Below are positions 3,896 to 61,170 of a stretch of 64,000 bases of DNA, one piece after another; the stretch's first letter is position 1; the number at the start of each line of letters is the position of its first letter. The stretch covers positions 1,821,161-1,885,160 of the forward strand of contig QEOQ01000316.1 in NCBI GenBank assembly GCA_010279815.1, in the 5' to 3' direction. Under the pieces are notes generated by a model. The model saw only the letters and a list, made by a program, of their open reading frames with translations. It did no database searches and was not told the origin of the DNA. This DNA comes from Brachionus plicatilis. Taxonomy: Eukaryota; Rotifera; Eurotatoria; Ploima; Brachionidae. A program made the position numbers and the translations under genes.

Positions 3896-4923
3896 TTTGT
3901 GGTGACGTTTACTGACGTTCATTTTATATCAGTCAATAAATTTTTTGTATCATATAAACTTTTTATTTTTTAGCCAAAAATAAATTTTTTAAAGCTTCTA
4001 AAATAACAGACTAAGAGATCAATTGCTTTTATTGCTTTTTAATTTTATGCAAACATTTTGAATTAATATAAAGTAAAACTTAATTTCACAATATAGGTCT
4101 AATTAAAGAAGAAAAAAATTTTAAATTTATGTATTTAAAGTTGAAAATTATTTTGACCTAAAATAGAAAGCCTTAATATCGTAATTTTTCGAAAATATTA
4201 AATCAATTATTTAATTTTTATAATTATGAAAAATAAAGTAAAGTCGATGATATAAAATATTGAAAGATCTAATGATTAATTGATTTAAATATTTTTTTTA
4301 AATCTATTTAAAAAAATTAAATAAATCAGGGTAAGAAATCGAGTAAGAAATTTTTTGACGAAATTAATTGATGAGGTTTACTAATGTCAGAAATACATAT
4401 AATTTGCCAAAACAAAAATTAAGATCATTTTTAAATAAAAAATAAATAAACAAAAAATTTTATTTAAAAATTGAAAGAAAAAAAGATTAAAATTTTTAAA
4501 AAATGGACAAATTATAAATCCCACATTCCCTGATAGCATTAGGGAATGAAGCTCAAAAATAATAATTTTGTCAAAAATCATTTTAAATAAGTGAATATTT
4601 TCCATAATTTTTGAAACAACAGAAAGCAAGGTATATCACTGAAATTATATAATTAGTTTTTAATTATTATTAGATAGTGTTCAGAAAATATTCGTTTACA
4701 AGAAAAATTACTCATTTTTAAAAAAAAAAAGGCGTTCTTGAAAATTTACGGATCAATATAAAATTAATAAAAAAAAATTTTTAGAAAAATCTGATATTGG
4801 AATTAAATTTTTTAATTTAAAACAAAAAAATCAAAAAATTGTCTAAAATAAAATTGATAAATAAAAAAAAATTAAAAATATCAATGTGAATTATGAAGTT
4901 TGAAATGAGCTAGTTTTTTTATT
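3896..4923. other. intergenic, nothing recognised
   Basis: Very AT-rich spacer downstream of the calreticulin stop codon, with only short fortuitous frames. Confidence 0.6.
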
Positions 4924-37000: not shown

Positions 37001-40000
37001 CCTTTTGGACCAAGACCCATGCCATCTAAAACTTCGGATATTGACGGAAATTTAGGATGTTTATAAACTTCGTCCAATTCAGATTTGTTAAAATTTTCCA
37101 ATATTATACAAGGCACTCCGATTTGGTCATCTTTTTTGTCCTCATTTTGCATGCTTTGATTGGGATCTTGATTTTCTGAATCCTCTTCTTGATTCTGCTG
37201 TTGTTGCAGAAGAAGTTGCTGTTTTTCTGCCTCGGCTTTTAGTTTTTCGGCTTCGGCCTTTTCTTTCTCTTTTTCTTTTTCTTTTTTCTCTTTCTCCTTG
37301 TCTTTATCTTAAAATATATTTTTTTAAAAATAAAAGAATCAAATCTGGGACGGGTCTTGGTTCACGAAAGGACTATTTATTATTACAACAGACAGCTTAC
37401 CTGCCCATATGACCGAAAAGTAAATATTATTTAGAATAGCGTCTAGATGGTTAATTTTTTTTTTTGAATTACCTTGACAAATTTAATTAATTCTTAGACT
37501 AGATTAAGGATGAAATTTTGTTGCCTGATTTATTTAATACATTTTTTATTTTTTTTAAATTTTAAAAACTTAATTCATTTTTTTTAATAGTTAAATAAAA
37601 AATTTAATTCTAATTTATTAAAATTGAACTAAAAATAATTTTTCAACTATTATCAAAAAGAAATTTTATATAATTTTCTAATCAAAAATTTTAAATTCTG
37701 TAAGAAAATTAATTTTTTTTATTTCCAAAAAGGTTTGCAATCAAAGTTTTTAAAAGTCACATTTGGGATCTCACAGTTTAACCAGAAAAAAAAAATTACT
37801 TTTTAAAGCTTTTGGCTTTTTATTCGGTAAGTGGTCATCAGGATCAGACTTTTCTGACGGAGACGGTTGTCTAAACACAGTTCCTTGAGTTCGGTCCCAG
37901 GCATCAAGTAAATTGCATAATTCTTTGAAATGTATATCAAAAGTCTTGAATCTTTGCTGGAGAAATTTTTCGGCTTCTTTTCGTTTCTCCTCTTCAGGAT
38001 CAATAATCTTTTCTTTTACCATCGAATCTTCATCGGTGTTTTTGGCATTTTTTTTCGGTTTTTCAGCATTTTCCTCGACCGATGCTCGAGTATGAGGCCG
38101 CTCAGTACCATTAGGTTGATTAACCTTATTTTCTACTTTTTGTTCTTTGGCCTCTTTGGGCGCCTCTTTTTTTGCAGCATTATTTTGACTTTGAACTGTT
38201 GATTTTTTGTCACTCTCTTTACCACCTATAGTTTTTTTCTTTTTTTTCCTTAAAAAAAAAAGTAAACAATTTTTTTCTCACCACAAAAAAAACCCACTGT
38301 TTCTCTTCTTCCATTCTAGCCTGTTGTTCAGCTAGTTCTTTTTCGATGCGTTCCCTCTCAGCCGCTTTTTCCTCGGCTTCTTTTTTCAATCTGTGCTTCT
38401 TGGTCTCCAAAAATCGCTCATCAATCAGCTTTCGCCTCTCAGATGGAAGTGAATTATAAGTCTCTTCGTCCATTTCCTCGATTTCTCGTTGTTCTCTCAG
38501 CTCTTGTTCCTTTCTTAGTCTTTCTTTCTCCTCCTGGAGCTTGGCCATTTCTACCTTGTATTTTTGATAGTCTGATTTCATCACTAGGAAATAAATATAT
38601 CTTCTGTTATTGAACGCTTTGAGGACAGCAGTAGCGGCTAGTAAATTATTTTGAGCAAACAGCGTATCCAAGCCATCGATTATGATTCCCTTATTGCAGT
38701 CTGAAAGCATAAATCTGTCACTCAAAATTTCCACGAGTACTTCTTCTGGAAGAACTGTGCTCATGAACCCATCTTCGTTACTGAACAGGTTGGTTGAAAT
38801 GCTGAGCTTTCTGGCCACTGGCCCGGATAAAGGCGGCGGTGTTGATGGCTTTTAAAAATAAAAAAATTAAAATATATGTAGTATTCTCAGCAATCAAGCT
38901 TCTTTAGCATTTCCATAATATAAAATAAATTTTCAAATTGTCTTTTATACTTTACTAATGAAATTTTAAATCAATTAAATTTAAGTATAAAACTCATTAA
39001 TTTTTAAAAGACAATAAGAAATATTTATTTTTAAAACAAAATAATAATTTTTCTGAATTAATTGGCTTATTTAAAATTTTAAAATTCAACTAGAAATTTC
39101 CTATCCATATATCTTTGATATTTATTTTTTTTTGGTTTTCTTTTTTAATATTTTAATTATTGCAAGTTTAAGAATTTTTTTAATTTCTAAGTCTTTTTAA
39201 ATTGCGCTTCTGACAATTAATATTATAGAGAAATTAAATTAAAAGATAAATTATTAATAAATTTACAATTAAAATATTTTGATAATAAAATCTTTAATTC
39301 TAGAATATTTATTGAGTTTTTATTATTAATTTAAATTTTAGGACATAATTGTATTAAAAGCGAAGTAAAAATTATTTCTTAAGTTTTTTGGGAATTTTTA
39401 AAATTAAAAAAATTTAAATCGATTGAAAAAGATAATTTCAAAAATTCATTTACTTAATTCTTGCTTCAAATTTTTTTCTTTTATTTTTTAGATCGTGGAT
39501 CGTTATTTAATGTAAATTTTTTCAATATATTTATTCCAATTTTTTTTGCTTAAAAATTAAATTTAATATTTTGACTATTTGGTGAATCTTGGATATCAAA
39601 AAAAAAAAAAAATTTTATTACAAAAAACTCTTCTTTTTTGCATGAAAATTATTTTTTTCTTTTTATCAAATTATTATAGAAAAAAACTCAAACTAAAATA
39701 AAAAATTAAAATAAAATTTACATGATTAGATGATTGATCTGCATTTGATGCATCTCCTTTTAGTTTTTTACCGAGTTTAATATTTGCATGAGAATCTCCG
39801 GCCACCGATGTTTTTTTACTTCCACCAGGATTTCCTCCAACACTAATTGAATGCTGAGCCAAAGCCTCAACACTAAGTCCACCAGCTTGATTGACAGTAT
39901 TTTGACCAGTCACGTGAGTAGTTTTAGCCATTTCGGCCTTTTCCTCTTCGGCCAATTTGGTTGCCGCCTCAGCGCAGAACTGGCGCGCCTTGGCCGCTGC

Positions 40001-43000
40001 CGCCGATGTACTGCTAGCCAAAGCCTCAATTATTACTGAATCAATTGTGAGCAAAGCGCATTCGTAGTGTTTGGCCAAAGCCACTGCAGCTTGACTTTTT
40101 CCTGATAGTGGTGGTCCGTGCACTACCATTGAGACGCCGCGTCTGTTTCGGGCAGCGCGTCCTTCGCTTGACAAATCTATGCCTAGGTATCTAGCTATTG
40201 AGTCAAATACGGGATTTTTTTCCACATCTCCCACTGCTTGCTGAGAGCCCGAAGATTCAATTTGGATCTCCTGTTTCTCGGCCTCTTCGGTGTTCTCGAT
40301 TTCATTTATTGTGTCATGAAGAAGCTGCTTTTGTTTCTGGTCTTCATCTTCGAGTTTTTTCTGCTGATCTTCATAGTAGTCATACAATTCGATGGGTAGC
40401 TTTTCTCCGACAGTTCTGGGCGGAAGAAGAATAGTGTTGTACTCGTCATAGCCGCGGATTATTCTCAAAATTCTTTCCTCTTCGAGGTAATTTTTGTCAA
40501 ATTCTAAATTATAGATTTCTATGGGATAAGAACAAGGGTTGGATATTTTGACTTCTTGTTCATCGCCGGCACTGTGCGGCAAAATTGGATCAAATTCAAT
40601 TGAATTTTTGCTCAACTCAACTCTGGGCTCAAGGCCTTTTCCTTTGCATAGAATCATCAATCGCTGACTGCTTTGGGCCATTCGAATAGTCAATCTCTCT
40701 TCGTAGTTTTTTTCTTCAGTGGGCATGAATTTTATCTGAATGTTGGTCTTGTGGCCCGACAGGAGTATTCCGCTTGGTGGCATTATTTCAAATATTTTCG
40801 GCTTATTTTGTTCAGATTCATGTTTTTTCTTTCGTTTTAGATGCATGGGGGTGAATTTTTCTTCTTTTTTAGGCAGGTATGATGCTGACCAGTCGCACCT
40901 CACTTCCTTGTGATTGTTCAATTGAACCGTAATGATTTTGCATTCACCACATTTGACATCCGAAAATTCAATTATATCATTCGAAATTTGAAGATCTGGC
41001 ATAGTAACATTGGCTTTTAGGCGAAGGCTCACAATTGGACCATTAACAATCTTTAATAATTAATGATTAGTTTTTTTTGGAAAATTTAAAAATTTTGATC
41101 AATAGTAAAATTAATTAACTATTAGACAATTTATTAATAATGTAAAGCTAAGTCAATTTTTAGTGTTTTTTAATTTTTTGAAATTTTCTAAATTTTGCAT
41201 AACATTAATAATTAAATTTAAGACTGGTCAACTTTATTTAGAAAAAATAAATTCAGTTTTATGGATTCTTTTCAAAAAATTAATATTTGAATAATTTTTT
41301 TAGAAGAAGAGATAGAACAGCTCTATAAAAAATATTCACATTAAATTGCATTAAACTTTTAAATTCTTAAATTAAAAATAATTTTAATAATAAGAAATAG
41401 ATTGTAGATTAGCCTATTTATTCTGGTCACAAAATTCACAACTGAAAATAAACAAAGTAAAAAATAAGAACATTTTGCACTATGAGCAATTGCTACCAAA
41501 AAATTGTAATTGAAATATTTTTTAAGTTGTATTTCGATGTACAAATTTAAAAAAATAATAAAAAATATCTAATCTAGTTTATTTTTTCGATTTAAATTTT
41601 CAAATTTTTTTCTAAAATTATCAGAGAATTATTATCTTATTTTTTTTTCATTATTTAAAATCCATCAATATTTAAACATTTTTTACTTCGCCTGTTCTGT
41701 GATCTTTATTAAAGCAGTTGAAAAATAAATTATTCTGGATTCATAAAGTAATGCTAAGTAAATTTAGTTCACATTGGAGAATAAAAATGAGCAGTAAAAA
41801 TTTTTTAAGAAATAAATTTTATAAAATATTTAAAAAAATAAATACATTTATAGGTATGACATGTTCGACAGGGCCTAGGCCAAGGTTCGCACCTCTTGGA
41901 TCAAATGTGACCACGAATTCGACTGAAACGTCATGAGGTAAATATCGAACTTTTTCTAGATCGATTAAAAATCCAGTTTTGGAGAAATTTTGTCTTTCGA
42001 TTTCGAAACTAGCTGATATTTTTCCCATATTAGCCGCTCTGACTACATGGGTCTTTACTGTGCCGAGGATCACGTGACCAAAGTCCAGTATGTAATCAGG
42101 CAAAAATGGTCTTAAAAATAATTATAAAAACTCAAAAAACACAATTTTTATTAATTTACTTTATTTTTTTTTTGATTAGGCTTTTTGAGCTGATAGATGT
42201 TTTACTAGAAGCGGCACTTTTTGACTGCAAAGCCGATTGTTTTTTCGATTGTTTAGGACTAGACGCTTGTTCCAAGACCTCTTCGGCTTTTGAATCATTG
42301 CTTTCACTCGATACAACACTTTGATTATCTTTTTCATAAGGCACTACCTGGAACATGTCAGCCGAGTAGGCTCTGACAAAATTTTCAATGGCCAATCTAT
42401 CGATTTCAACTTGGAGATCCAATTCTGGCACCAAATGCAGTGACTTTTAAATTAAAAATATAAATTTTTTATTAATTTTTTCATATGAAATTTATTATTG
42501 CTTTTGGGTCTTAATTTTTTTTCAAATAAATACAAATGGATTAATTAGAAAATTTAAAAAAAAAATCTATTTACATTCAGGTCCGCATCGGATTTTTGTT
42601 CAGCATTTTTGACAAAACTTTTTGCTTCATCTTTTAATTGAATGTAGGAATCGGTCTCAAAGCGAGGAAGATCAAGCATTATATCAGCAAAGCCCGCGTC
42701 CCCTTCAATCAAAATGTCCTCTGGGGCAAAATGTGAAATTTGTAGTTGGAATGTTTTTGAGAACTTTTTAGGACTACCAGGTAGGTATTTAACAGTCAAT
42801 GTTTCAGTTTTGTCCGCTTCGATTGAACCCTGTCAAAATTATTAAAATATTCATTTTACTTCAATTATTTAAAAAATACTTTTATTGGAACAATTATTGG
42901 AACATCGGGCTCAATGACATACTCAGTCTGATTTTCATAGTCAATTCCAATCATACTATACTCAATATTGACTCGGCCTAAATTCTTAATTGTAATCGTT

Positions 43001-46000
43001 GCCTCACTTATTTCATCATAAGACTAAAAATTTTTTTTTTTAATTTAATCAAAAAATAAATTTTTTCATTAAAAATTTTTTTACAATATTTCCAAAATTA
43101 ATTTGTCTAGTATTTAGCTCATAATTGAGAACGGAAGCCTCGCCATGAAGACTTAATTCATATTCAGGTCCATTGTGGACCTCGCAAACTGCTTTAACAT
43201 AAGCCTGGATTTCTTTGTGACCAAAATAGGTGATGGTCAAATTTTGTACTTCGCCAGGGTTGAGTGTGCCAAACAAAGGAGTTATGTTGAATATTTCTTC
43301 AATGGTGGGAAGTTCACGTTCACCATTTCTGGTCAACATTTCCTCTAGTTTGCTCTCGATTTGAGCTTTTGATTGATCAATGAGACTCTGGCTGTTGGCA
43401 AAATTGTTCTCATCTTGGTTCTCTTCATTTACGTCAGACAAATCGAGTTTAAAATTTTTGCTATCTGATTCAATTGATCTATTTGTGTGACTCTCAGTCA
43501 AAGGCAGATTGGAAATAATGTTGTCTTTTTCTAGCAAAAATTTCCAATTGTAATTCACTTCTAGTGGTCCAATATTGGTCATTTTAATAACTTGAGTGAC
43601 TTCTGTATTATTTAAAATGCAGCCAAAGTCAATTTGATTCATTTCAAGATGAATGTTTGGAAAGTATATTTCTCCGATTAGATTGACTACATCGCCGTGC
43701 TGATGTTCTGAATAGTTTATGTTTAGCAACCCATTGGAGACTTGGTTGTGCAAGTCGCGTTTGAATTGTGTGTTGTAGTTGATGGCTATTTGCAGCGATT
43801 CTCCAGTTCTTAAATTGGTCATTATTTCGTTAACTAAATTTCCGGTCTCTTGGTCAACTAGGCTAAATGGTGAGCTTGTAGACATGTGGGCAGTAAGATC
43901 TAGTGAAGACACATTCGATAGTGTCAAATTTTTTATCTGATTTGGAGGCAGGCTTTGTCCATCCTAGAAAATTCAATTGATTAAAAAATGTGAAAAATGA
44001 GTTTATTCTATCTATTATAAACAATATTTTTCATAGTCAAAAAAAAAAAAAATTTATTGCAAAAAAAAGGAAAGATTGCCAGATTAACATTTTTAAGTAT
44101 GGTTTATATAGAAAAATTTGATGCATTTTCCGCAATCTATTAGAAATGGTTGTATTCAAGATAGAAAATTATTGTAAATATTTGTTTTTTAACGCCACAC
44201 TAAGAACTTTTGGGATCTCAAAAAAAATTGAATTTTGAACTTTCTAAAAAATTGAAACAGAAATTTTCGGCATTTTCATTTTCATCCTAAATTTTTTGGC
44301 CGTGAAAATTAAATTATTGTATTGTATCAAAACCGAGTTTTTGATTCTTTAGTGCTACGTTAAAAAAAAAAAAAATTTTGCAGTATATGATTTAAAAAAA
44401 TTATCCAAAATATATTTTATATTTTAAATTTTCTTATTCTATCGATTCTTACATTTGGAATAAAATAATTTACAAAAATTATTCTATTCTTAAATCTAAA
44501 AATTGGAAATAATTTAAGATTAAAATCTACTTAAGAATTTAATTCAAAAAGAATTGAAGAAATTTAATAAAATAAAAAGGCCTTTATTTTACTCAGGACC
44601 TAAAATATTCTATTCAGTACATAATTAAATTTTATGTAATACCAAATAAAATTTAATCCTAACCAAAAAACTAGTACCTAATATGTTTTACTAGTACCAA
44701 AAATAATTTAATAATACCTAATACTATTAGGTACAACTATTTTAGTAAGTACCAAAAATTAATTTTAATGAAACCAAAAATTGAAGGCAATTGTAAAAGT
44801 GGACGTCCAAAGATAGCAAAGCCAGCGTGGATGAGAAGTGAACCATCCAATTTATCTGAAATCGATAAATTGACAATTGCTCCATCAGTACAACCATAAA
44901 CATCATCAGAACAACTATCAGACTCGTTAGAACAACCACCACCACCATCACAAGTATCACAACCAAAAACAAAGGACAAAAAAGATGTTATTATTAAAAG
45001 ATCAGCTCGATTGGCTAAAAAGAATTAAATTTGTTTATTTTTTATTTTTTTCTTAAATTTTCTCTAATAAATTTTACTATTTCTTTTTTATAATTAAATA
45101 AAATTTTATAAAACGTCAAAAATTACGTTTTTTTTCTAATAAAACTGACAAAAAATGTTTTTCGGTACTAGAAAATTTAATTGGGTACGACTAAAACGTA
45201 TTTGCTATTTCTAAATTATTTTTTGGGACTTAATAAAATATAAGCCAAATAAATACTTCTTTTGTTAACATTTAAAATTTTTGTTTTCTACATGATACAT
45301 GTTTTCAAGATAATTTTGATTGTTTATAAATTTTTTGACATGAATCTGAATTTTTAATTTTTGTTAAAAATTCGAAAAAAAAAAGAATTGAAAAAATTTT
45401 TATGAGTTAGATAAAAATGAAAATTTTCCAAATCCTCGCCAACACAAACCTTAAAATTTTTATTTCTTTTATTAAATGTTTGAAAATTTACGCTTTTTCA
45501 CATTAATAAATAAAATTGCTAAAATTTCTTATTTGTTTAATGAATATTTGTTCCAAAATTCATGTAAAAAAATTAAAATAATAAAGAATAATCAAAATTG
45601 AATCAAAAAAAAAGCTACTATTTGACATTTTGACTTTTTTCAGCTCTAATTTCATTAAATAACAATTCAACTCGAATTTAAAATAAAAAAATGAAAACAA
45701 AATAATTACATGTTCGCATCTGAATACAAGATCCTTGGTAGAAAAAGAGACCAAAGGCGCAACAAACTCGCATCTAATTTTAAACCTCATAATTCTGTCC
45801 TTTCCACTAGTCTTTCCAATGATCGAATTGCAAACAAAATATTCCTCGACTAGCTGCGGCTTTTCGCCAAACGCCTCCACACAAATTTCCTTGCACTCGC
45901 CCGGATTAAGCTCAACCCGATTTGGGTTTATCTTAAAAATAGTGTTGGGCATACTTTTGGACATTTTCTCTCTTCTATTGGAATTAGCGCCGGCAATTTC

Positions 46001-49000
46001 TGGCATAAACGACAAACTTTGCTGTCTAGAGCTTCGATTGGTGAGTTTGAACACTCTTTTGAGCCATCCACCACTGAAAAAAGTGCCAAAATCAATGGCA
46101 CTGCCAATACTGGGCTCACAGACTATGGAACTTCCAGCGCCCTGAGCCCTCACATTTATCTTTTGAGTGTTGGCGTTCTCTATCTCAATAAAAATGCAGT
46201 CGTCATACCTAGTCTTGTCAATTAGATAACAAATAGCCTTGAGGACTATTTCGGCACCTGGCTCGACCACACCTTGAGATGGCTCGACCCTCCACGACGA
46301 GTTCCTCTTGGCCATCAGCACCCTAAACTTGGCCTCGATCAGCGACTCGTTGGAAACAGTGATGTCCCTGGCCGACTTTTGCAGCACAGTGGTCAAGCCC
46401 CAGTCTATTTCTTTGGGCAATATTTGGCACACTGGTCCTTGGCTAATGCAAATGAAACTACACTTTAGTGGCGGCTCAACACTTCCATTTATTTTGATCA
46501 GCAAATCTGATTGTATGTCGCCCAATTGCAGCGATTCGGCCAGCACGGACACATATTTTACCGAGTTGGCCTCAATGACCCCTTCTGCCTGGCCACTGCT
46601 GAATTTTATTGTGTCATTTGGCTTGGACGGCAGCAAATAGTACCTGGCCTTGAGAGATGTGTCGTTTTGCAGCTGAATTTGCTTTTCGTATGAATGATAG
46701 ATGAAGCAGCGGCCCAGGTCTATGTCAGGGCTGAGAGTGGTGATCTGGGGCACTGCTGAACGCGCACTGACCGGCAATTGGAACAGCTCATCGCCAACAT
46801 TTTCAATGTCCACGACCAAGTGTGTCTCGTATTTTTTGATAAAATGTGGCACGAATTCGACCAGAATTTTTATTTCACTCTGCGGTGGTATTATGCCCTG
46901 GCTGGGCACAATGGAAAATTCCTTGAAATTGTACTCATCGTGGTCGGACTGGACAAAATCTCTGGCTTCGCTGTCGCTGGCCACTCGCAGATTGAAGCTC
47001 ATGGGCACCAGCGATGTGTTGGCCAGCATGCACTGATGGGTGTACTTGAAGCCATAGGACACCAGGCCGTATTTGATGGCCGGCACGTCGAACACAAACG
47101 TGGGCGGTATCACCGTGCCTTGCACAATCATGGTATACTTTTCGGGCTTTCCGTCAATGGTAAAGTCAAATGTTTCGCTGAAATCCCCCAGTTTGTCGCA
47201 GGTGAGTGTGATGTTTATGGCCTGGTAGCCGTTTGGAGATATGAGGCCTTCGTTGGGCTCGAAGTTGAAGTACTGGCCAAATTGGCTGTTTGGCATGTTG
47301 ACGTTGTAGATGGCGTCAATGAAGCCCCGGTTGGACAGGACCACTTCGTAGACGTGGGTCGAGCCGATGAACACGCTGCCAATGTCCAGCTTTTCGATGG
47401 ACAGCTGCACTTTGGGTCCGGCGCCAACTCCGCTCAGTCTTAGCGGCAGTCGTGACTCCCGACCTGTCACTTGGCAGTAAGCTATTTTGTTGTAGATTTG
47501 GGCATAGTCCGGCTTGAATATGACGCTTACTTCAAATGATGAGTGGGGCCATATGTCGCCCTCGATGGGCTGGATGAAAAACACCTCGTCTTCGAAAATA
47601 AATGATTTGTGTTCGGTGGTCTTTATTTTGTTCTGAAAATTTCTGGACAACAGTGCCATGTAGTCTTCGGCCAAGTTGGACATTTTTATTTTGGCGTTCT
47701 CTTCTTCTCGGCTCAGATTGAGCACTTCTTTTAGGCGCTGCTGCTGTTCTAGCTCAGTGGTGGCGAATTTTTTCCACTCAAAGTGAACTATTATGTCGCT
47801 GCGGTTGTGGATGGTCACAGTCCGCTGGTTACACATGGTGATGTAGGTGTCTTCGATGCGAATTGAGCTTTTGTCCAGGCGGACGTTGATGTCCTGAGCA
47901 GCGCCGTACAGAGACACGTAAATGGTCTCGTTTGAGTCGTATTTTATGCACAGTTCTTTTTTGTATTCGCCGCATTTTTGCGCATTAAAGTACGCTGTTA
48001 CCTGCATGTTTTCGCCCACAGGCAATATTCCGTGCTCGGGTGACACCGAAAAAGGCCTTAAGAATAAATGTGAAATTGGTAGTGTTTTTAGCACACAAAA
48101 AGGTTGTTTAAACACATTAAGCAAAATTTTTTTTACAAAATAGAAAATAAATTCAGTGAAAGAATTCTTAAGAAAAAATTTAATTAAAAATTAATTTTTA
48201 ATTTTTTTTTTTAAAAGCCTGTTTTCATGCTTTTTGAATAATTTTGGGAGCTAATTTATCATTTAATGTTCTAATTATTATTATTATTATTATTATAAAT
48301 GTAATCTGCAACGAGCTGAGCTCGCAGAGCTAGGGTTAAAATACCTAGCTATGGCAGATCAATAACATAGACATTAAAGTAACTAGTAAAAAAAAAAAAT
48401 TAAGGTTTTTTTTTTTAAATTGAATTTCAAAATTGTAATGCATTATTGGATTTTATTCAGAGATGGTCAAGAGTCAAAAATTGACTTAAAAAAAAGGTGC
48501 AAAGTTAAAACTCAACTTTGAATTTTCAATTCTGACTTTGAGTTTTTTTAAATTATTTTTATGAATTTTGTATGAAATTTCTTAAAAAACTTTTAATTTT
48601 CTATTAGTAAAACCAAAATTTTTAATTGTGAAAATATTTTCTTCCGATATGATTTATTTGAATGAATAAAATAAAATTTAAGTATAGGAAATAGAATTAT
48701 AGGATATTTCTTTGAATATCTAAGATAATACTAAATTTTGTTTTATTGATAATTTTTTTTTAAAACAAAAATTTCGAATTAAATTAAAAGAACATGCTTT
48801 TAAAATTCATTTAAATAAAAATTGATCTATAAGGTAAAAAAAATAAAACTTGCAATAATAATAATGTGATAAATAGTCAAAATTGATTGCTAATTTTTTC
48901 AAATTTCTAATAAGTAATTTTTAAAAATGAAATTATAAAAAAAAATTAAATTTTTATAAATTTGATTTGAATTTAAAAAAAAAATCTTAATAAAAATATT

Positions 49001-50135
49001 AAAAAAATATATATCTGATTAATTAAATTAACAAATAAAATTTTCAAAAATATTGAAAAAATTTTTTCGATTAATTTTAAAAATACAAGGGCATAGTATG
49101 TAATCTTTTAAACAGAAACAAAACTATAGAAAAAAATTATATTTTTAATGAACAAAATTTACGAAATAAACTTATAAATGGATGAAAGACAATATTGGAA
49201 TTAAACCACACATTAAGCGACTTTTTTGTCAACTGACAAAAAAATTATTTTCTTTTTATTTTATGATGTGAAATAAAAAAATTATTAAACAAAAACTTAC
49301 TCTTCACATTTAAGAGAAAATTTTGCATCTCTATTTCCGATGTTGCGGATGCATAGAACTTTGAATGCCGAGTGCTTGACTGGACACGTTCCGTCGGCTG
49401 AAAAATTGATCTCGTCCGGAAAGTCAAGAATGGCCCGCGAGCCAATGCATTTAATCGGCACTATGAATTTTTCTCGCTCGGTAGTAACTATAAGTTCGTG
49501 GTTGTAGTCTTTGTTTTCTTCTGGAACAAATTGAATTTTGTAGATAACCGGGAGACCAGGCCCGACTTTTTGGTGTGAGTCGGCCGATGTGATTATCTTA
49601 AAATACGGTGTATCCAACTGGGTTACTTTTACTAAACGCGGTACTTTGTCATTGTTGCGTAACAAAAGCGGTATTTCGTAGGTCATAAATGGTTCGAATT
49701 TTTGAAAGAATATTTCGGATGGATACGGCTGGAACATGGGCTCATCCACCATAAGTTGAGTATTCTTAAAAAAAAAATATTTATATTTATTTAAATTTTA
49801 TTAAAAATAAAAAATTTAAAAAAAAATTATTTTTACTTTTTGAAGACTGGTTTCGCCCATGTCGAGTAGTTCGATTATTTTGGGCAAATGCATTTCGTGT
49901 GTGCTGGCCAGCTTTTGTCTAGTATCCATGGACATTTCTTTCAGAAACTCCGAAGGCTTAAGCTATCAAAAAAGAAGTTAGATGGAAAAAATTGTGATTT
50001 CACTTGGACTACCTTTCGAATTGTTTTGATTTCTTTGATAAGTTTGGGATTTTTGGGCGCACTTACTTTACTCTGATAAGTAATGTGCGGCAAGGCTTCC
50101 AACGAGCCTACTGTTCCCTTAATCTCCCAAGACAT
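22542..50135 (-). CDS. HYDIN: HYDIN, central-pair C2b projection protein of motile cilia, complete
   Basis: Nineteen exons on the minus strand: 50013-50135, 49837-49962, 49301-49764, 45710-48056, 43085-43963, 42880-43023, 42575-42829, 42160-42443, 41846-42110, 39722-41050, 38294-38848, 37800-38238, 36884-37307, 35114-36775, 33957-34109, 33766-33873, 31795-33600, 28383-30047, 22542-25071. Every junction is GT-AG and phases agree throughout, giving 5,185 codons plus TAA; vertebrate HYDIN is about 5,100. HYDIN is built from many ASH/MSP-like immunoglobulin-fold repeats and is needed for beating of 9+2 cilia. Family landmarks seen in order include LPKIIELLDMGE, LDFGHVILG, an adenylate-kinase-like P-loop, LGPKGPPIPPP and LLPYCHFELDESDYI. 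An in-frame ATG at 50168 would add 11 residues. The exon 11/12 junction is the least certain. Confidence 0.96.
25167..25735. repeat. MITE with inverted GAGAATACGGCAAATTGAAG ends
   Basis: The left end reads GAGAATACGGCAAATTGAAG followed by AGATCAA. The right end has the components in inverted order (GATCTGAAACTTCAATTTGCC), then a direct GAGAATACGG. The right half matches the repeat at 15660-15925. Confidence 0.6.
25795..26701. mobile_element. element with mirror-image TTCGACA motif arrays at both ends
   Basis: It starts CTGTTTTCGACAAG and ends with the exact complement CTTGTCGAAAACAG. From each end inward there are about ten copies of a degenerate (T/C)TCGACA(A/T)G motif at spacings of about 10-20 nt (left array 25795-25953; right array about 26551-26701). 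The two arrays point at each other, with about 600 bp of AT-rich non-coding DNA between them. Arrays of this kind usually bind the transposase, so it is probably a non-autonomous DNA transposon. No family is recognised. Confidence 0.7.
26740..27062. repeat. foldback with AAGTCA/TGACTT arrays
   Basis: AAGTTAAGTCATTTGACTTG with further GACTT units at about 26780-26832 is mirrored by AAGTCATTCTAAGTCAAG and AAGTCAAATGACTTGACTT at about 26964-27012. Related arrays occur in TBC1D32 intron 2. Confidence 0.65.
27178..27490. repeat. dispersed repeat, inverted partner of 56378-56815
   Basis: Holds GTAAAACCATGGATTTGTTA, CCTACAACTTTTTAAAAGG, TTCTTTTTAGACACCTGGAT and TTTGAATTTCTGGAACCT. All recur in reverse-complement order in TBC1D32 intron 8. 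Confidence 0.75.
27548..27868. repeat. foldback MITE with about 115-bp arms
   Basis: Left-arm landmarks GGCATTGTGAATTTTGGTAC, CCAAAGCTTAAGTTCTGAAG and ATTGTAGCAACTGATACATC all have reverse complements in the right arm (about 27745-27868). The loop is about 80 nt. The arms differ at about one base in ten. Confidence 0.8.
28383..30047 (-). CDS. HYDIN: HYDIN exon 18
   Basis: 555 residues. It opens with the strand VTVINRGRISFDYSWK, then a long Ser/Lys/Asp-rich disordered insert (about 100 residues, 29.65-29.95 kb). The conserved ASH block follows: FSVEPSFGKIEAGQSQTFKV, LLPYCHFELDESDYI and EPRVLFDKSYVMFQPLLVG. GC-rich like exon 19. Confidence 0.94.
30048..31794. other. HYDIN intron 17
   Basis: 1,747 nt of AT-rich sequence; I see neither a gene nor a clear repeat in it. 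Confidence 0.7.
31795..33600 (-). CDS. HYDIN: HYDIN exon 17
   Basis: 602 residues of ASH-type repeats. Typical family text includes TPAYGILLQGGHQIITVDC and EEELMIDIVDRD at its start and IRFKDTLMFQTR at its end. The latter runs directly into exon 18, so this domain is split by intron 17. Confidence 0.95.
34110..35113. other. HYDIN intron 14
   Basis: 1,004 nt, AT-rich, no recognised content. Confidence 0.7.
35114..36775 (-). CDS. HYDIN: HYDIN exon 14
   Basis: A basic Ser/Arg/Lys-rich linker (36.45-36.75 kb) is followed by ASH repeats (FRWILPPNAEMSIRLRFTS, EFGPLLVGNNKDRCREGKFP, FKQVLLHRKDSKEIKMTN). The segment equals the part of HYDIN after the P-loop region. Continuity into exon 15 (SITPQSEINFGAILNNT) fits the family. 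Confidence 0.94.
36884..38848 (-). CDS. HYDIN: HYDIN exons 11-13: charged coiled-coil region
   Basis: Exons 38294-38848, 37800-38238 and 36884-37307. Exon 11 has the conserved LPEEVLVEILSDRF...DCNKGIIIDGLDTLF block, which completes the kinase-like fold begun in exon 10. A long Glu/Lys/Arg coiled coil follows. Exon 12 has the LLDAWDRTQGTV motif. Exon 13 starts with an EKEKEKKEKEK run and ends with LGPKGPPIPPPASF. The only phase-consistent acceptor for exon 12 (at 38239) lies behind an A-run rather than a pyrimidine tract, so that boundary may be off by a few codons. Confidence 0.85.
37308..37799. other. HYDIN intron 12
   Basis: 492 nt, AT-rich, no recognised content. Confidence 0.7.
38849..39721. 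other. HYDIN intron 10
   Basis: 873 nt, AT-rich, no recognised content. Confidence 0.7.
39722..41050 (-). CDS. HYDIN: HYDIN exon 10: ASH repeat and adenylate-kinase-like P-loop
   Basis: Residues about 1630-2072. ASH-type strands (IEFSDVKCGECKIITVQL, GILLSGHKTNIQIKFMPTEE, SSQRLMILCKGKGLEPRVEL) lead into ARNRRGVSMVVHGPPLSGKS. GPPLSGKS (residues about 1941-1948, bases 40094-40117) is an intact Walker A motif, followed by ALAKHYECALLTIDSVIIEA. HYDIN is the only ASH giant with such a nucleotide-binding-type insert, so this exon alone fixes the identity. Whether it binds nucleotide is not known from sequence. Confidence 0.96.
41051..41845. other. HYDIN intron 9
   Basis: 795 nt, AT-rich; short frames inside are not conserved-looking. 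Confidence 0.7.
41846..43963 (-). CDS. HYDIN: HYDIN exons 5-9
   Basis: Exons 43085-43963, 42880-43023, 42575-42829, 42160-42443 and 41846-42110, with introns of only 49-131 nt. Landmarks are FGCILNNTEVTQVIKMTNIG, NITPLFGTLNPGEVQNL, FGHKEIQAYVKAVCEV, ILIEGDAGFADIMLDLPR and DYILDFGHVILGTVKTH. This stretch is much more AT-rich than exons 18-19. Confidence 0.94.
44172..44395. repeat. MITE with TGTAAATATTTGTTTTTTAACG-type inverted ends
   Basis: The left end is TTGTAAATATTTGTTTTTTA followed by ACGCCACACTAAG. The right end is the inverse (CTTTAGTGCTACGTTAAAAA...GCAGTATATG). It belongs to the same family as 61855-62110. Confidence 0.7.
44768..45028 (+). pseudogene. small transposon-like ORF with AT-hook-type start and basic end
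   Basis: An 86-codon plus-strand frame from ATG 44768 to TAA 45026, interrupted by one in-frame TAA. It opens with CKSGRPKIAKPAWMRSEP, has a Pro/Ser/Gln-rich middle and ends IIKRSARLAKKN. This composition fits a DNA-binding tail of a mobile element. Flanking TAGTACC/GGTACTA motifs (44.67-44.76 and 45.16-45.20 kb) suggest element ends. The family is not recognised. Confidence 0.35.
45710..48056 (-). CDS. HYDIN: HYDIN exon 4: N-terminal ASH-repeat array
   Basis: 783 residues. Landmarks: PFSVSPEHGILPVGENMQV, YGAAQDINVRLDKSSI, NQRTVTIHNRSDIIVHFEWK, IQPIEGDIWPHSSFEVSVIF, LDIGSVFIGSTHVYEVVLSN, FDVPAIKYGLVSYGF, IDLGRCFIYHSYEKQIQLQN and FVAPLVSFSTKDLVF. This is the N-terminal quarter of HYDIN in the expected order. 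The antisense frames here are coding shadows. Confidence 0.96.
48057..49300. other. HYDIN intron 3
   Basis: 1,244 nt, AT-rich. It contains a short retroposon-like tail (48272-48362) and scattered AAGTCA motifs at 48.46-48.55 kb. Confidence 0.7.
48272..48362 (-). repeat. retroposon 3' end with (ATT)n tail
   Basis: About eight ATT units followed by a GC-rich block that read on the minus strand is GATCTGCCATAGCTAGGTAT...CTCTGCGAGCTCAGCTCG. A GC-rich 3' end with an AAT-repeat tail fits a LINE/SINE insertion in the same orientation as HYDIN. Confidence 0.5.
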
Positions 50136-50268
50136 TTTGGATAAGATTTGGGTTTTATAATAATTCAATGTATTAACGGGTAAAGTTTCTAATACTCTTC
50201 TAAAAATTATAGCAAAATTTCAAAAATGTATTATAAAATATCAAAGAGTATTGGAGTCAAATTGGTTT

Positions 50269-50282
50269 GTTGTCATGGCAAT
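50269..50282. promoter_or_regulatory. RFX X-box 1
   Basis: GTTGTCATGGCAAT matches the inverted-repeat X-box consensus GTTNCCATGGNAAC at 12 of 14 positions by eye, or RYYNYY-N2-RRNRAC except for the last base. It lies 134 bp upstream of the HYDIN start. Confidence 0.8.
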
Positions 50283-50357
50283 CTTTAAACAAAATTTTAA
50301 TTTTAAAGTAGAACGAAGCGGCATGAGCCGTATATGAACAATTTATTACTTAATCTT

Positions 50358-50371
50358 GTTTCTATGGAAAC
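50358..50371. promoter_or_regulatory. RFX X-box 2
   Basis: GTTTCTATGGAAAC is a full X-box: both half sites are intact with a 2-nt spacer under RYYNYY-N2-RRNRAC. It lies within a longer symmetric context (CTTGTTTC...GAAACAAG, 50355-50374), 122 bp upstream of the TBC1D32 start. Confidence 0.9.
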
Positions 50372-50493
50372 AAGCTATCCAAAAGTTCAATGTCATGGGC
50401 AAAACAGGAAAAAAAATTTTAAATTTGAATTTTTTTTTATTATAATAAAATAAATTTTCGGAAATATTTTATTTATTTTTTCACATCATTGGC

Positions 50494-59400: not shown

Positions 59401-61170
59401 GTGCGATTACTCTACTCTAAATGCCAAGGTGAATTTTTGATTAAAGATTATGGACTCAATAAATTAATCAGCGATACGTGGAGATCAGTAAATATTTAAT
59501 ATTTATTATTTAAAAAAATTTAATCATAAATTAAGCTTGTCGTGGAAAAACCAGTCAATGATACACCTAGACCATTGGAAGAAAAACAAAATAACAGCTT
59601 GTTATCATGGCCCGATTCATTACTGGACAATTTATTAAACATGGCATCAACGCCAAAAGGTGTTTTCTACTTAAACGAAACTGAACTGCTGGGACAAGTG
59701 ACCAACTATTTGTATAAACGCTACAGGTCCAAAATTCAAGTGGGTAAATATGAAAAATTCGGCTACGGATTTTTGATCTCACAACTGGCCAATACTCCTA
59801 GTGGATGCTATTTCCTTAACGAAGCCCAGATTATCCAGTCCATAATAGATGATATTTGGATAGAACTTGAATCCGGTACTGATGATTTTATGAGCGCATT
59901 TCCAAGAGCTTATTCGGTTGAACCAATTGACCGGGAAGTATACAAACCAATGCTTTGCTTAGTTAACATTTTATCCTCCTTTTCAGCTGTGTACGAGTTT
60001 TTGGCAGATGTTTTCTCTACACCTAGGCCTTTATACGGGTGCAAAGATTTTCCCAAAGGTCTTATAAGTCTACTTGAGCGAGTCACTTTTTTGGACAAAA
60101 AATCAAAAATTTCAAGTCTATGTAACTTTGAACAATCTCATATCTTTGGTCTAAAACTGATCAGTATTTTACAATTTGATCTGGACATTCTTCTCTTAAT
60201 TGAAGTTCAATATGATTTGAATAGAATCTTGTTAAACCTTCAAAAGTCCAATCGATCCAAAAATTTTAATTTCCAGTCTGAAGAAGGTGAGATGAACACG
60301 AGCAGAGATGAGACCGATGAACAGTGGGAAAATTTGGAGGAAAATGCAGAAAACTGCGAAATTATTCTGGATGCTCTGTCTGTTGAAAGAAATTTTGTTC
60401 TTGTTAACTCAAATGTGATCGGCGGTCCAAGTGAAAGACTTTTACCAGATAAAAATTTTACAGATTCAGTAAGACGCTTTTTTTTCATTTTTTTTAAATT
60501 GAATTATTTTTTTTTAAGAAAATTTCTGAATATAATTTTCCTTTATTTGATAAACTGCCAGTTCCTAGTTTTTACATTAAAAAGCCACTGTATCAAGATA
60601 GAACTGGTATTTTTAAAATTTGATTAAATTAAAGTTGTAAATTAAAAATCGTTTTTAGAACCGGACTTTGAAAATTTTATAAACAGCTTTAGCTTTATTG
60701 AAATTACCAAGAGCGAAGAGTCTCAATTAAGATGGAAGTCAGATTTTCAAAATTTTTACCTAAAATGTCTCAAAGAGTCAAAAGCAAATACCGAAATTAT
60801 GTCAATGGCTCTTGGCCAGTTTGTAAAAATTCTGCTCAAAATTGATGCCAATAGTCTCATTAGTCGAATAGAACCAAAAACTGATATTGAGAGCATAAAA
60901 TCAAAATATATCAAAAAACAGCCTAATTTATCACAACTCAATCTTCTAGGAATTGAAAAAACAATTCAGTAAATAAAATTTTTTTTGTCAAAAAAAAAAA
61001 AAAAATTATTTTTAATTTTAGATATGCTCAAATGATAAATAGACAAGGAAAACTGTCGAGAGAAGAATCATCCAACAATTTTATTGAATTAATAAAATTT
61101 AGTAAAACTTTATTAAAAAAAAGCAATACAAAGACCAAAAAATCTCAGTCAAGAAATGAGTCGTACTTAG
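50494..61170 (+). CDS. TBC1D32: TBC1D32 / Broad-minded, C-terminus not seen
   Basis: Thirteen exons: 50494-51213, 51274-51456, 53186-53383, 53436-53492, 53567-53609, 53734-53889, 53947-54018, 54075-54360, 59298-59487, 59536-60468, 60519-60606, 60659-60968, 61022-61170. Phases agree at every junction; 1,128 codons are visible against about 1,260 in vertebrates. Family landmarks include LEDNLKHMEETDGNFHRHDL, the NGRKLFPIKMSN stretch, STPKGVFYL, KYEKFGYGFLISQLA, FEQSHIFGLKLISIL and LSVERNFVLVN...GGPSERLLP. In vertebrates Broad-minded works with CDK20/CCRK at the ciliary base and affects ciliary length and Hedgehog signalling. The last visible exon ends with a phase-1 GTAAGA donor, so about 200 residues including the TBC-like end lie downstream. 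The exon 5 donor (GTCCTA) is weak. Confidence 0.93.
51890..53000. repeat. 1.1-kb foldback with AAGTCA arrays at both ends
   Basis: The left end has AAAGTCAAAGTCAACTCATG and AAAGTTAAGTCATTTGAGTT. The right end has ACTCAAGTCAAATAACTAAA and TTAAGTCATTGACTTC. Further inward, CCCAAATATTAAATAAATT (about 52,076) is mirrored by AATTTATTTAATATTTGGGG (about 52,700). Same motif family as 26740-27062. Confidence 0.65.
52345..52366. repeat. perfect 22-nt palindrome
   Basis: The half site ATTTAACGACA is followed directly by its complement. The core GTCGTTAA recurs at about 52,391 and 52,428, so it is part of a small repeated motif set inside the foldback element. Confidence 0.8.
55091..55774. mobile_element. 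Tigger/pogo (Tc1-mariner superfamily) element
   Basis: The ends CAGTCGACTCTCTTTAATCC and, inverted, CAGCCGACTCGCTTTAATCC are flanked by TA on both sides (55089-55090, 55775-55776). This CAGTCGACTC-type terminus with TA duplication is characteristic of pogo/Tigger elements. A transposase C-terminus lies inside on the minus strand. Confidence 0.88.
55325..55592 (-). pseudogene. Tigger transposase C-terminal remnant
   Basis: The minus strand reads GEALTDQDIIEIVQ, then DDEVEIVDQEPVSVSYKQAK and AIDQAIDRSRNFF. A slip in a run of eight T leads into KDFNECDLELLSKIKERM. The acidic linker followed by a helical pair matches the tail of Tigger transposases. The DDE catalytic core is missing. Confidence 0.75.
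56378..56815. repeat. dispersed repeat, inverted partner of 27178-27490
   Basis: Contains AGGTTCCAGAAATTCAAA, ATCCAGGTGTCTAAAAAGAA, AAAAGTTGTAGG and AAATCCATGGTTTTACTTTT, the complements of the HYDIN intron 18 copy in reverse order. Confidence 0.75.
57799..58014 (-). pseudogene. zinc-finger-type transposase C-terminal fragment
   Basis: The 71-codon minus-strand frame begins CDCKRGSRIFGSCAHVTSVL, continues WFMGIEKHN, and ends in an acidic tail NNDTLSDEE before TAA. The C-x-C-x-x-G-x-R-x(4)-C-x-H-V pattern is a SWIM-like zinc finger common at the ends of a widespread invertebrate transposase group. Stop codons directly precede it, so it is a fragment. It lies antisense to TBC1D32. Confidence 0.6.
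58258..58613. repeat. near-perfect hairpin, 153-bp arms, 50-nt loop
   Basis: 58258-58410 pairs base for base, without gaps, with 58461-58613. I find a single mismatch (ATTAAATCT against ATTAAGTCT). The structure would form a long double-stranded RNA in the TBC1D32 pre-mRNA. Its ends resemble foldback MITEs. Confidence 0.9.
58614..58910. repeat. TTAGCAA / TTGCTAA mirror array
   Basis: TTTAGCAA, TTCAGCAA, TTTAGCAA, TTGGCAAG and TTAGCAAA occur from 58617 to 58768. GCTAATTT, TTGCTAAAA, CTGCTAAAA and TTGCTGAA occur from 58848 to 58906. The two groups face each other, as in the TTCGACA element. Confidence 0.55.

What the first reader, a model, noticed from the sequence alone, without database searches (positions are those of the whole stretch)
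50136..50493. Two ciliary genes share a 358-bp divergent promoter with two RFX X-boxes
HYDIN and TBC1D32 are head to head. GTTGTCATGGCAAT (50269-50282) and GTTTCTATGGAAAC (50358-50371) match the RFX X-box consensus, and each sits 122-134 bp upstream of one start codon. X-boxes bound by RFX factors are the established switch of ciliary genes in nematodes, flies and vertebrates. Pairing a motility protein with a ciliary-base regulator under one element is, as far as I know, not described, and could be a conserved microsynteny block.
Basis: partly seen in the sequence, partly recalled or inferred. Interest (0 to 1): 0.8.

Follow-up and report, generated by a model that had tools for sequence, protein, structure and literature searches.

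The report
Back-to-back ciliary genes with X-boxes
In a small animal genome, probably a rotifer's, two genes needed for cilia sit back to back around a short stretch carrying two copies of the DNA switch that turns on ciliary genes in other animals, and relatives appear to keep the two genes together.

Summary
A matrix built from X-boxes elsewhere in this genome ranks them first and second of all positions in the 64-kb window. The motif is strongly enriched genome-wide (110/100 matches against 3/5 for the reversed pattern), though at least 11 places are copies of one repeated element.

The main new result is on microsynteny. Four protein clusters of TBC1D32 from unnamed relatives have the same longest-contig length as a HYDIN cluster (44,694, 11,228, 6,967 and 5,305 bp), so the two genes are very probably linked in four relatives. 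Orientation and X-boxes there could not be read.

Best reading: an ordinary RFX ciliary promoter used in both directions. It is a new member of a known kind; the RFX-linked TMEM138/TMEM216 pair is the nearest precedent. RFX binding, co-expression and transcription starts were not testable. The RFX gene was not found, but those searches cannot show absence. "One element" is unproven, because each site may serve its own gene.

The parts
50136..50493 (.). 358-bp divergent intergenic region between the HYDIN and TBC1D32 start codons
50269..50282 (-). X-box 1: ATTGCCATGACAAC on the minus strand; full fit to RYYNYYATRRNRAC on the HYDIN strand, 133 bases from the HYDIN ATG
   Evidence: matrix score 12.8, second best in the window
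50358..50371 (+). X-box 2: GTTTCTATGGAAAC; fits RYYNYYATRRNRAC on both strands, 122 bases from the TBC1D32 ATG
   Evidence: matrix score 20.6, best in the window
50286..50293 (.). TAAACAAA, a possible forkhead-type site 3 bp from X-box 1; weak, since the 8-mer occurs 24 times counting both strands of the 64 kb
   Evidence: forkhead reading recalled
50013..50135 (-). HYDIN exon 1 (41 codons, starts MSWEIKG)
   Evidence: splice sites read by eye
49837..49962 (-). HYDIN exon 2
   Evidence: splice sites read by eye
49301..49764 (-). HYDIN exon 3, N-terminal Ig region
   Evidence: splice sites read by eye
45563..48190 (-). Large HYDIN exon ORF (876 aa), used for the relatives search
39677..41059 (-). 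HYDIN ORF with Hydin_ADK domain PF17213
50494..51213 (+). TBC1D32 exon 1 (240 codons), BROMI_N and the start of BROMI
   Evidence: 3' end read by eye from the GT and from homologues
59530..60624 (+). TBC1D32 exon ORF, BROMI central region and start of BROMI_C

Best explanation
The 358 bp are a compact bidirectional promoter of two ciliary genes, HYDIN (central-pair protein) and TBC1D32/BROMI (a regulator placed at the ciliary base, role recalled). Two near-palindromic X-boxes 89 bp apart are bound by an RFX-family factor, one near each start codon, and switch on both genes in ciliated cells, possibly with a forkhead partner. Sharing one short interval would make the pair hard to separate, which would explain why relatives keep it. 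Shown: genes, geometry, motif quality, genome-wide enrichment and promoter-proximal placement of the motif. Inferred with strong support: linkage in four relatives. Inferred only: RFX binding, joint switching, and selection as the reason for conservation.
For: Gene identities. Both sites top the window under a matrix from other loci. Strict pattern 110/100 matches in the genome against 3/5 for the reversed pattern; the class of site 1, RTTGYCATGRCAAY, 69/69 against 1/1, with 16 of the 50 listed places (this one included) not the perfect palindrome. Of 20 fetched X-box loci (the first 20 of 56 listed places), 16 are neither element copies nor inside a coding ORF; in 11 of these 16 the site lies within 400 bp upstream of a predicted coding segment, against 1,293 of 8,000 random non-coding positions in the same loci. 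One is the axonemal gene DRC7, site 180 bp from the predicted coding segment; another a MORN protein whose best PDB hit is FAP266, site 97 bp away. Linkage: TBC1D32 and HYDIN clusters share longest-contig lengths 44,694 and 11,228 and 6,967 and 5,305; 4 or more coincidences in 0 of 200,000 jittered draws. Check of the method: two HYDIN pieces named Didymodactylos carnosus also share one length, 5,020. The four linked TBC1D32 rows fall at separate places in the relatives' tree. [quoted passage not shown]
Against: No RFX gene was found: families PF02257 and PF25340, a recalled 83-aa DNA-binding domain and a pattern for a recalled peptide gave no match; a second pattern gave 71/72 matches against 34/48 for its control, of which I looked at two places, neither RFX. 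For the family and protein searches the tool says that empty answers do not show absence. In Drosophila an X-box upstream of an ATG is by itself not predictive of RFX dependence (PMC2375033, passage). No expression or start-site data. Site 1 is the weaker match. hydin and tbc1d32 have 0 occurrences in the main text of two RFX2 papers (tables in supplements not seen). Two of the six TBC1D32 clusters with a longest contig of 5 kb or more (33,126 and 21,676) have no HYDIN cluster of equal length; only 2 of the 10 HYDIN clusters with longest contig of 10-100 kb, and 2 of the 7 with 5-100 kb, have a TBC1D32 partner.
Confidence: 0.7

Rival explanations
1. Two independent back-to-back promoters: X-box 1 drives HYDIN only and X-box 2 drives TBC1D32 only. 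The closeness reflects a compact genome and gives no coupling.
For: One site lies near each ATG. Site 1 fits the consensus only in the HYDIN orientation, site 2 in both. Another tight head-to-head pair with one X-box between, L028, joins a ubiquitin-domain gene to an ankyrin-repeat gene that I cannot call ciliary, so such layouts need not be ciliary pairs.
Against: Linkage appears kept in relatives whose TBC1D32 exon is only 59-61% identical, which idle neighbours need not do; I made no test against the rate of rearrangement.
Confidence: 0.2
2. Only one gene is RFX-controlled; the other X-box is a weak or decayed site.
For: Site 1 scores 12.8 against 20.6 for site 2. hydin has a published Rfx2 link, while tbc1d32 has 0 occurrences in the main text of the three RFX2 papers searched for it.
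Against: Site 1 still outranks every position of the window except site 2, and its class is 69/69 against 1/1 in the genome. The published link is to hydin, the gene next to the weaker site.
Confidence: 0.07
3. The motifs are chance or belong to an unrelated palindrome binder.
For: The raw 2-mismatch count in the window is not above shuffles. Part of the genome-wide count is one repeated element (11 exact copies), and one fetched site lies in a DOCK-type coding ORF. No RFX gene was found.
Against: Matrix ranking and shuffles, promoter-proximal placement elsewhere, reversed-pattern control.
Confidence: 0.03

Closest known systems
RFX X-box promoters of ciliary genes (nematode, fly, vertebrate)
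   Same: Same consensus (RYYNYY N1-3 RRNRAC as printed in PMC2375033, passages), near start codons of ciliary genes; hydin under Rfx2 in Xenopus (PMC3889689, passage).
   Different: Two sites in one 358-bp divergent gap; lineage apparently rotifer; RFX factor not identified here.
TMEM138/TMEM216 cis-regulatory module
   Same: Two sequence-unrelated ciliary genes, adjacent, with RFX4-mediated cooperation and a conserved sequence between them (PMC12148096, passages, citing Lee et al. 2012, whose text is not held).
   Different: That pair is head to tail with an interval of about 23 kb; this one is head to head over 358 bp, with different genes.
Probable bidirectional promoter at Cep290, Xenopus multiciliated cells
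   Same: A promoter read as bidirectional, in a figure on binding of ciliary transcription factors (legend in PMC5245798, passage).
   Different: The passage names one ciliary partner only, and places the peaks more than 1 kb upstream of described starts; no paired X-boxes are mentioned in it.

Membership tests
RFX X-box element | Fits RYYNYY-N(1-3)-RRNRAC | tested here: met
   With AT spacer: site 2 on both strands, site 1 on the minus strand; consensus from PMC2375033
RFX X-box element | More than chance in place and in genome | tested here: met
   against: raw 2-mismatch count in the window not above shuffles, element copies
RFX X-box element | Upstream of a ciliary gene | tested here: met
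   HYDIN and TBC1D32; distances
RFX X-box element | An RFX factor is present in the genome | tested here: inconclusive
   None found; 2 places looked at, neither RFX; for the tool says an empty answer does not show absence
RFX X-box element | Site conserved in related species | not testable with these tools
RFX X-box element | RFX binding and RFX-dependent expression | not testable with these tools
   No binding or expression data
Bidirectional promoter | Head-to-head genes within 1 kb | tested here: met
   Start codons 358 bp apart; transcription starts themselves unknown
Bidirectional promoter | Divergent transcripts from the shared region | not testable with these tools
   No RNA data
Co-regulated ciliary gene pair (TMEM138/TMEM216 type) | Adjacency conserved in relatives | tested here: inconclusive
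   Equal longest-contig lengths in four cases argue for linkage; contigs not read, orientation not seen
Co-regulated ciliary gene pair (TMEM138/TMEM216 type) | Shared expression through the interval | not testable with these tools
   No expression data

The most novel reading that the evidence does not exclude
HYDIN and TBC1D32 form a long-lived head-to-head pair across a whole rotifer lineage, held together by a two-X-box promoter that ties the dose of a central-pair motility protein to that of a ciliary-base regulator: a conserved coupling of cilium building and cilium beating that I did not find in print (search).
Probability: 0.3. Interest if true: 0.6.

Novelty: new member of a known kind. 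Interest (0 to 1): 0.42.

Why it matters
If true, it extends the RFX/X-box ciliary code to a little-studied animal lineage, with a genome-wide motif set to back it, and offers a compact two-gene test of whether ciliary gene neighbours are kept together by shared control. CRISPR knockout and knock-in are published for the monogonont rotifer Brachionus manjavacas (PMC10395877, passages), so the test looks practical if the animal is a rotifer.

Tried and rejected
Raw motif counting in the window: uninformative, not above shuffles. TBC1D32 exon 1 against plasmids and PDB: no match, uninformative. The RFX gene: families, a protein and patterns and two fetched loci gave nothing; left open. Relatives' DNA in GTDB genomes (21 pattern stretches, none confirmed) and IMG/VR (none). 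Taking all 20 fetched X-box loci as promoters: rejected, because L012, L016 and L021 are copies of one element and L014 is inside a DHR-2/DOCK coding ORF; these 4 were dropped before the counts. L028 as a second ciliary pair: rejected, since the minus gene has a ubiquitin domain and looks BAG1-like to me (recalled), and the plus gene is a short ankyrin protein without a ciliary name. L017 had no PDB match. Naming the species: not possible. Paper searches: (all 10 allowed).

Full report
What is there. The interval 50136-50493 separates the start codon of a minus-strand gene (ATG 50135-50133) from that of a plus-strand gene (ATG 50494), each with an in-frame stop upstream. The minus gene is HYDIN: its exons carry HYDIN/CFA65 Ig domains and the Hydin adenylate-kinase-like domain, its third exon matches Hydrocephalus-inducing protein in the PDB at E 1.1e-55, and an 876-aa exon finds 52 proteins, many named hydrocephalus-inducing protein. 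The plus gene is TBC1D32/BROMI: BROMI_N and BROMI in exon 1, the BROMI central region and the start of BROMI_C further on. In the whole genome (102.9 Mb, 173 contigs) BROMI_N rings once; Hydin_ADK rings at two places in this HYDIN gene and once more, weakly, on contig 56 (34.6 bits).

The motifs. Site 2, GTTTCTATGGAAAC (50358-50371), matches the strict consensus and fits the loose one on both strands. Site 1, GTTGTCATGGCAAT (50269-50282), has two mismatches to the strict form and fits the loose one on the minus strand. A raw 2-mismatch scan of the window is not above shuffles (4 rows, mean 5.69). A matrix from 20 sites elsewhere (16 loci plus the 4 sites of L029) puts the two sites first and second of all window positions (20.6, 12.8; next 8.7); shuffles of the 358 bp reach them in 0 and 22 of 20,000, and both together in 0 of 20,000.

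The motif in the genome. GTTNCYATGGNAAC gives 110 forward and 100 reverse matches against 3 and 5 for the pattern read backwards; RTTGYCATGRCAAY gives 69/69 against 1/1. Near-palindromes count on both strands, and the two sets overlap in GTTGCCATGGCAAC. Part of the excess is not regulatory: 11 exact copies of a 26-base stretch around the palindrome belong to one repeated element, and one fetched site lies in a DOCK-type ORF. After dropping 3 element copies and the DOCK site, 11 of 16 sites lie within 400 bp upstream of a predicted coding segment, against 1,293 of 8,000 random non-coding positions in the same loci. The coding model is a simple codon score trained on this window, so distances are to predicted segments, not start codons. 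Neighbours that can be named include DRC7 and a MORN protein nearest to FAP266. A DUF3719 gene (FAM149-type by recall) has its site about 1.5 kb away. The others tested carry general domains or none. I made no control classification, so this is not a test of ciliary enrichment.

Relatives. The protein collection shows for each cluster the length of its longest contig. TBC1D32 exon 1 finds 16 clusters. Two share that length with clusters found by the large HYDIN exon: 44,694 bp (TBC1D32 90%, HYDIN 87% identity) and 11,228 bp (71% and 72%). Two more share it with clusters found by HYDIN exons 1-3: 6,967 bp (61% and 84%) and 5,305 bp (59% and 79%). Four or more such coincidences came up in 0 of 200,000 draws with lengths jittered by up to 20%. 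As a check, two HYDIN pieces both named Didymodactylos carnosus share the length 5,020. I conclude that both genes lie on the same contig in four relatives. In contigs of 5-7 kb holding both N-terminal exons, head to head is by far the simplest order, but it was not seen. Against: two of the six TBC1D32 clusters of 5 kb or more (33,126 and 21,676) have no equal HYDIN length; only 2 of the 10 HYDIN clusters with 10-100 kb contigs, and 2 of the 7 with 5-100 kb contigs, have a TBC1D32 partner. Since only the longest contig is shown, candidate lengths are bounded and some HYDIN clusters are from other animals, this is not evidence of separation, but it limits the claim. In the tree the linked TBC1D32 rows sit at separate places: 44,694 next to the window, 11,228 further out, 5,305 and 6,967 on the other side of the midpoint root.

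The organism. No tool names it. Among named hits, bdelloid rotifers (41-48% over part of the query) are not clearly above Branchiostoma (43%). In the HYDIN N-terminal tree, if one roots it on the Nematostella row, the window's group and the three bdelloid rows fall on one side of a fork with support 89/95 (drawn there at the midpoint). GC of the fetched DNA is about 27%, and monogonont assemblies of about 38 to 216 Mb are reported (PMC11954553, passages). A monogonont rotifer is my inference, not a result.

How it most likely works. RFX-family factors bind near-palindromic X-boxes next to start codons of ciliary genes; [quoted passage not shown] Here one X-box lies near each start, and a promoter of 358 bp would most simply fire both ways in ciliated cells. 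A TAAACAAA 3 bp from site 1 could be a forkhead site, as forkhead partners act with RFX (title or abstract beginnings of PMC10393296 and PMC5245798, search listings), but that 8-mer is common here (24 in the window on both strands). Whether the sites act jointly or one per gene is open. I did not find the RFX gene; a looser pattern gave 71/72 matches against 34/48 for its control, of which I looked at two places, neither RFX. Intron-split exons are a likely cause (inference).

What is known. Two ciliary genes sharing RFX-linked control are described for TMEM138/TMEM216 (PMC12148096, passages; the original Lee et al. paper is not held). In Drosophila, an X-box upstream alone does not predict RFX dependence, whereas conservation between species helps (PMC2375033, passages). 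For HYDIN with TBC1D32, the search lists three papers, none with either name in title or abstract; I did not read them. None of the 12 papers listed (of 124) holds the word rotifer.

Verdict. It is a new instance of a known regulatory kind in a little-studied lineage.

Noticed in passing
L012, L016, L021 (around position 3994); 11 exact copies genome-wide: A repeated element carries the perfect palindrome GTTGCCATGGCAAC inside a stretch that scores as coding. Whether such copies ever act as RFX sites is unknown.
   Followed up: partly
L029:1671-2329 (G000:C6:1199027-1199685): Four strict X-boxes within 660 bp, downstream of a cyclin-D-like ORF; the gene they serve was not identified.
   Followed up: partly
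L028:3263-4677: Another tight head-to-head pair with one palindromic X-box between: a ubiquitin-domain gene and a short ankyrin-repeat gene.
   Followed up: partly
L010: DRC7 (dynein regulatory complex) with a strict X-box 180 bp from its predicted coding segment.
   Followed up: yes
G000:C56:379158-379547 (L007): A second, weak Hydin_ADK match (34.6 bits) in a 543-aa open frame, not identified.
   Followed up: no
L020:754-2798 and L024:1-3089: Stretches open in all six frames, suggesting long tandem arrays near X-box loci.
   Followed up: no
window 50390-50405: A stretch reading GTCATGGGCAAAAC that resembles an X-box half-site beside X-box 2; it is not among the 15 best matrix scores of the window.
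   Followed up: no
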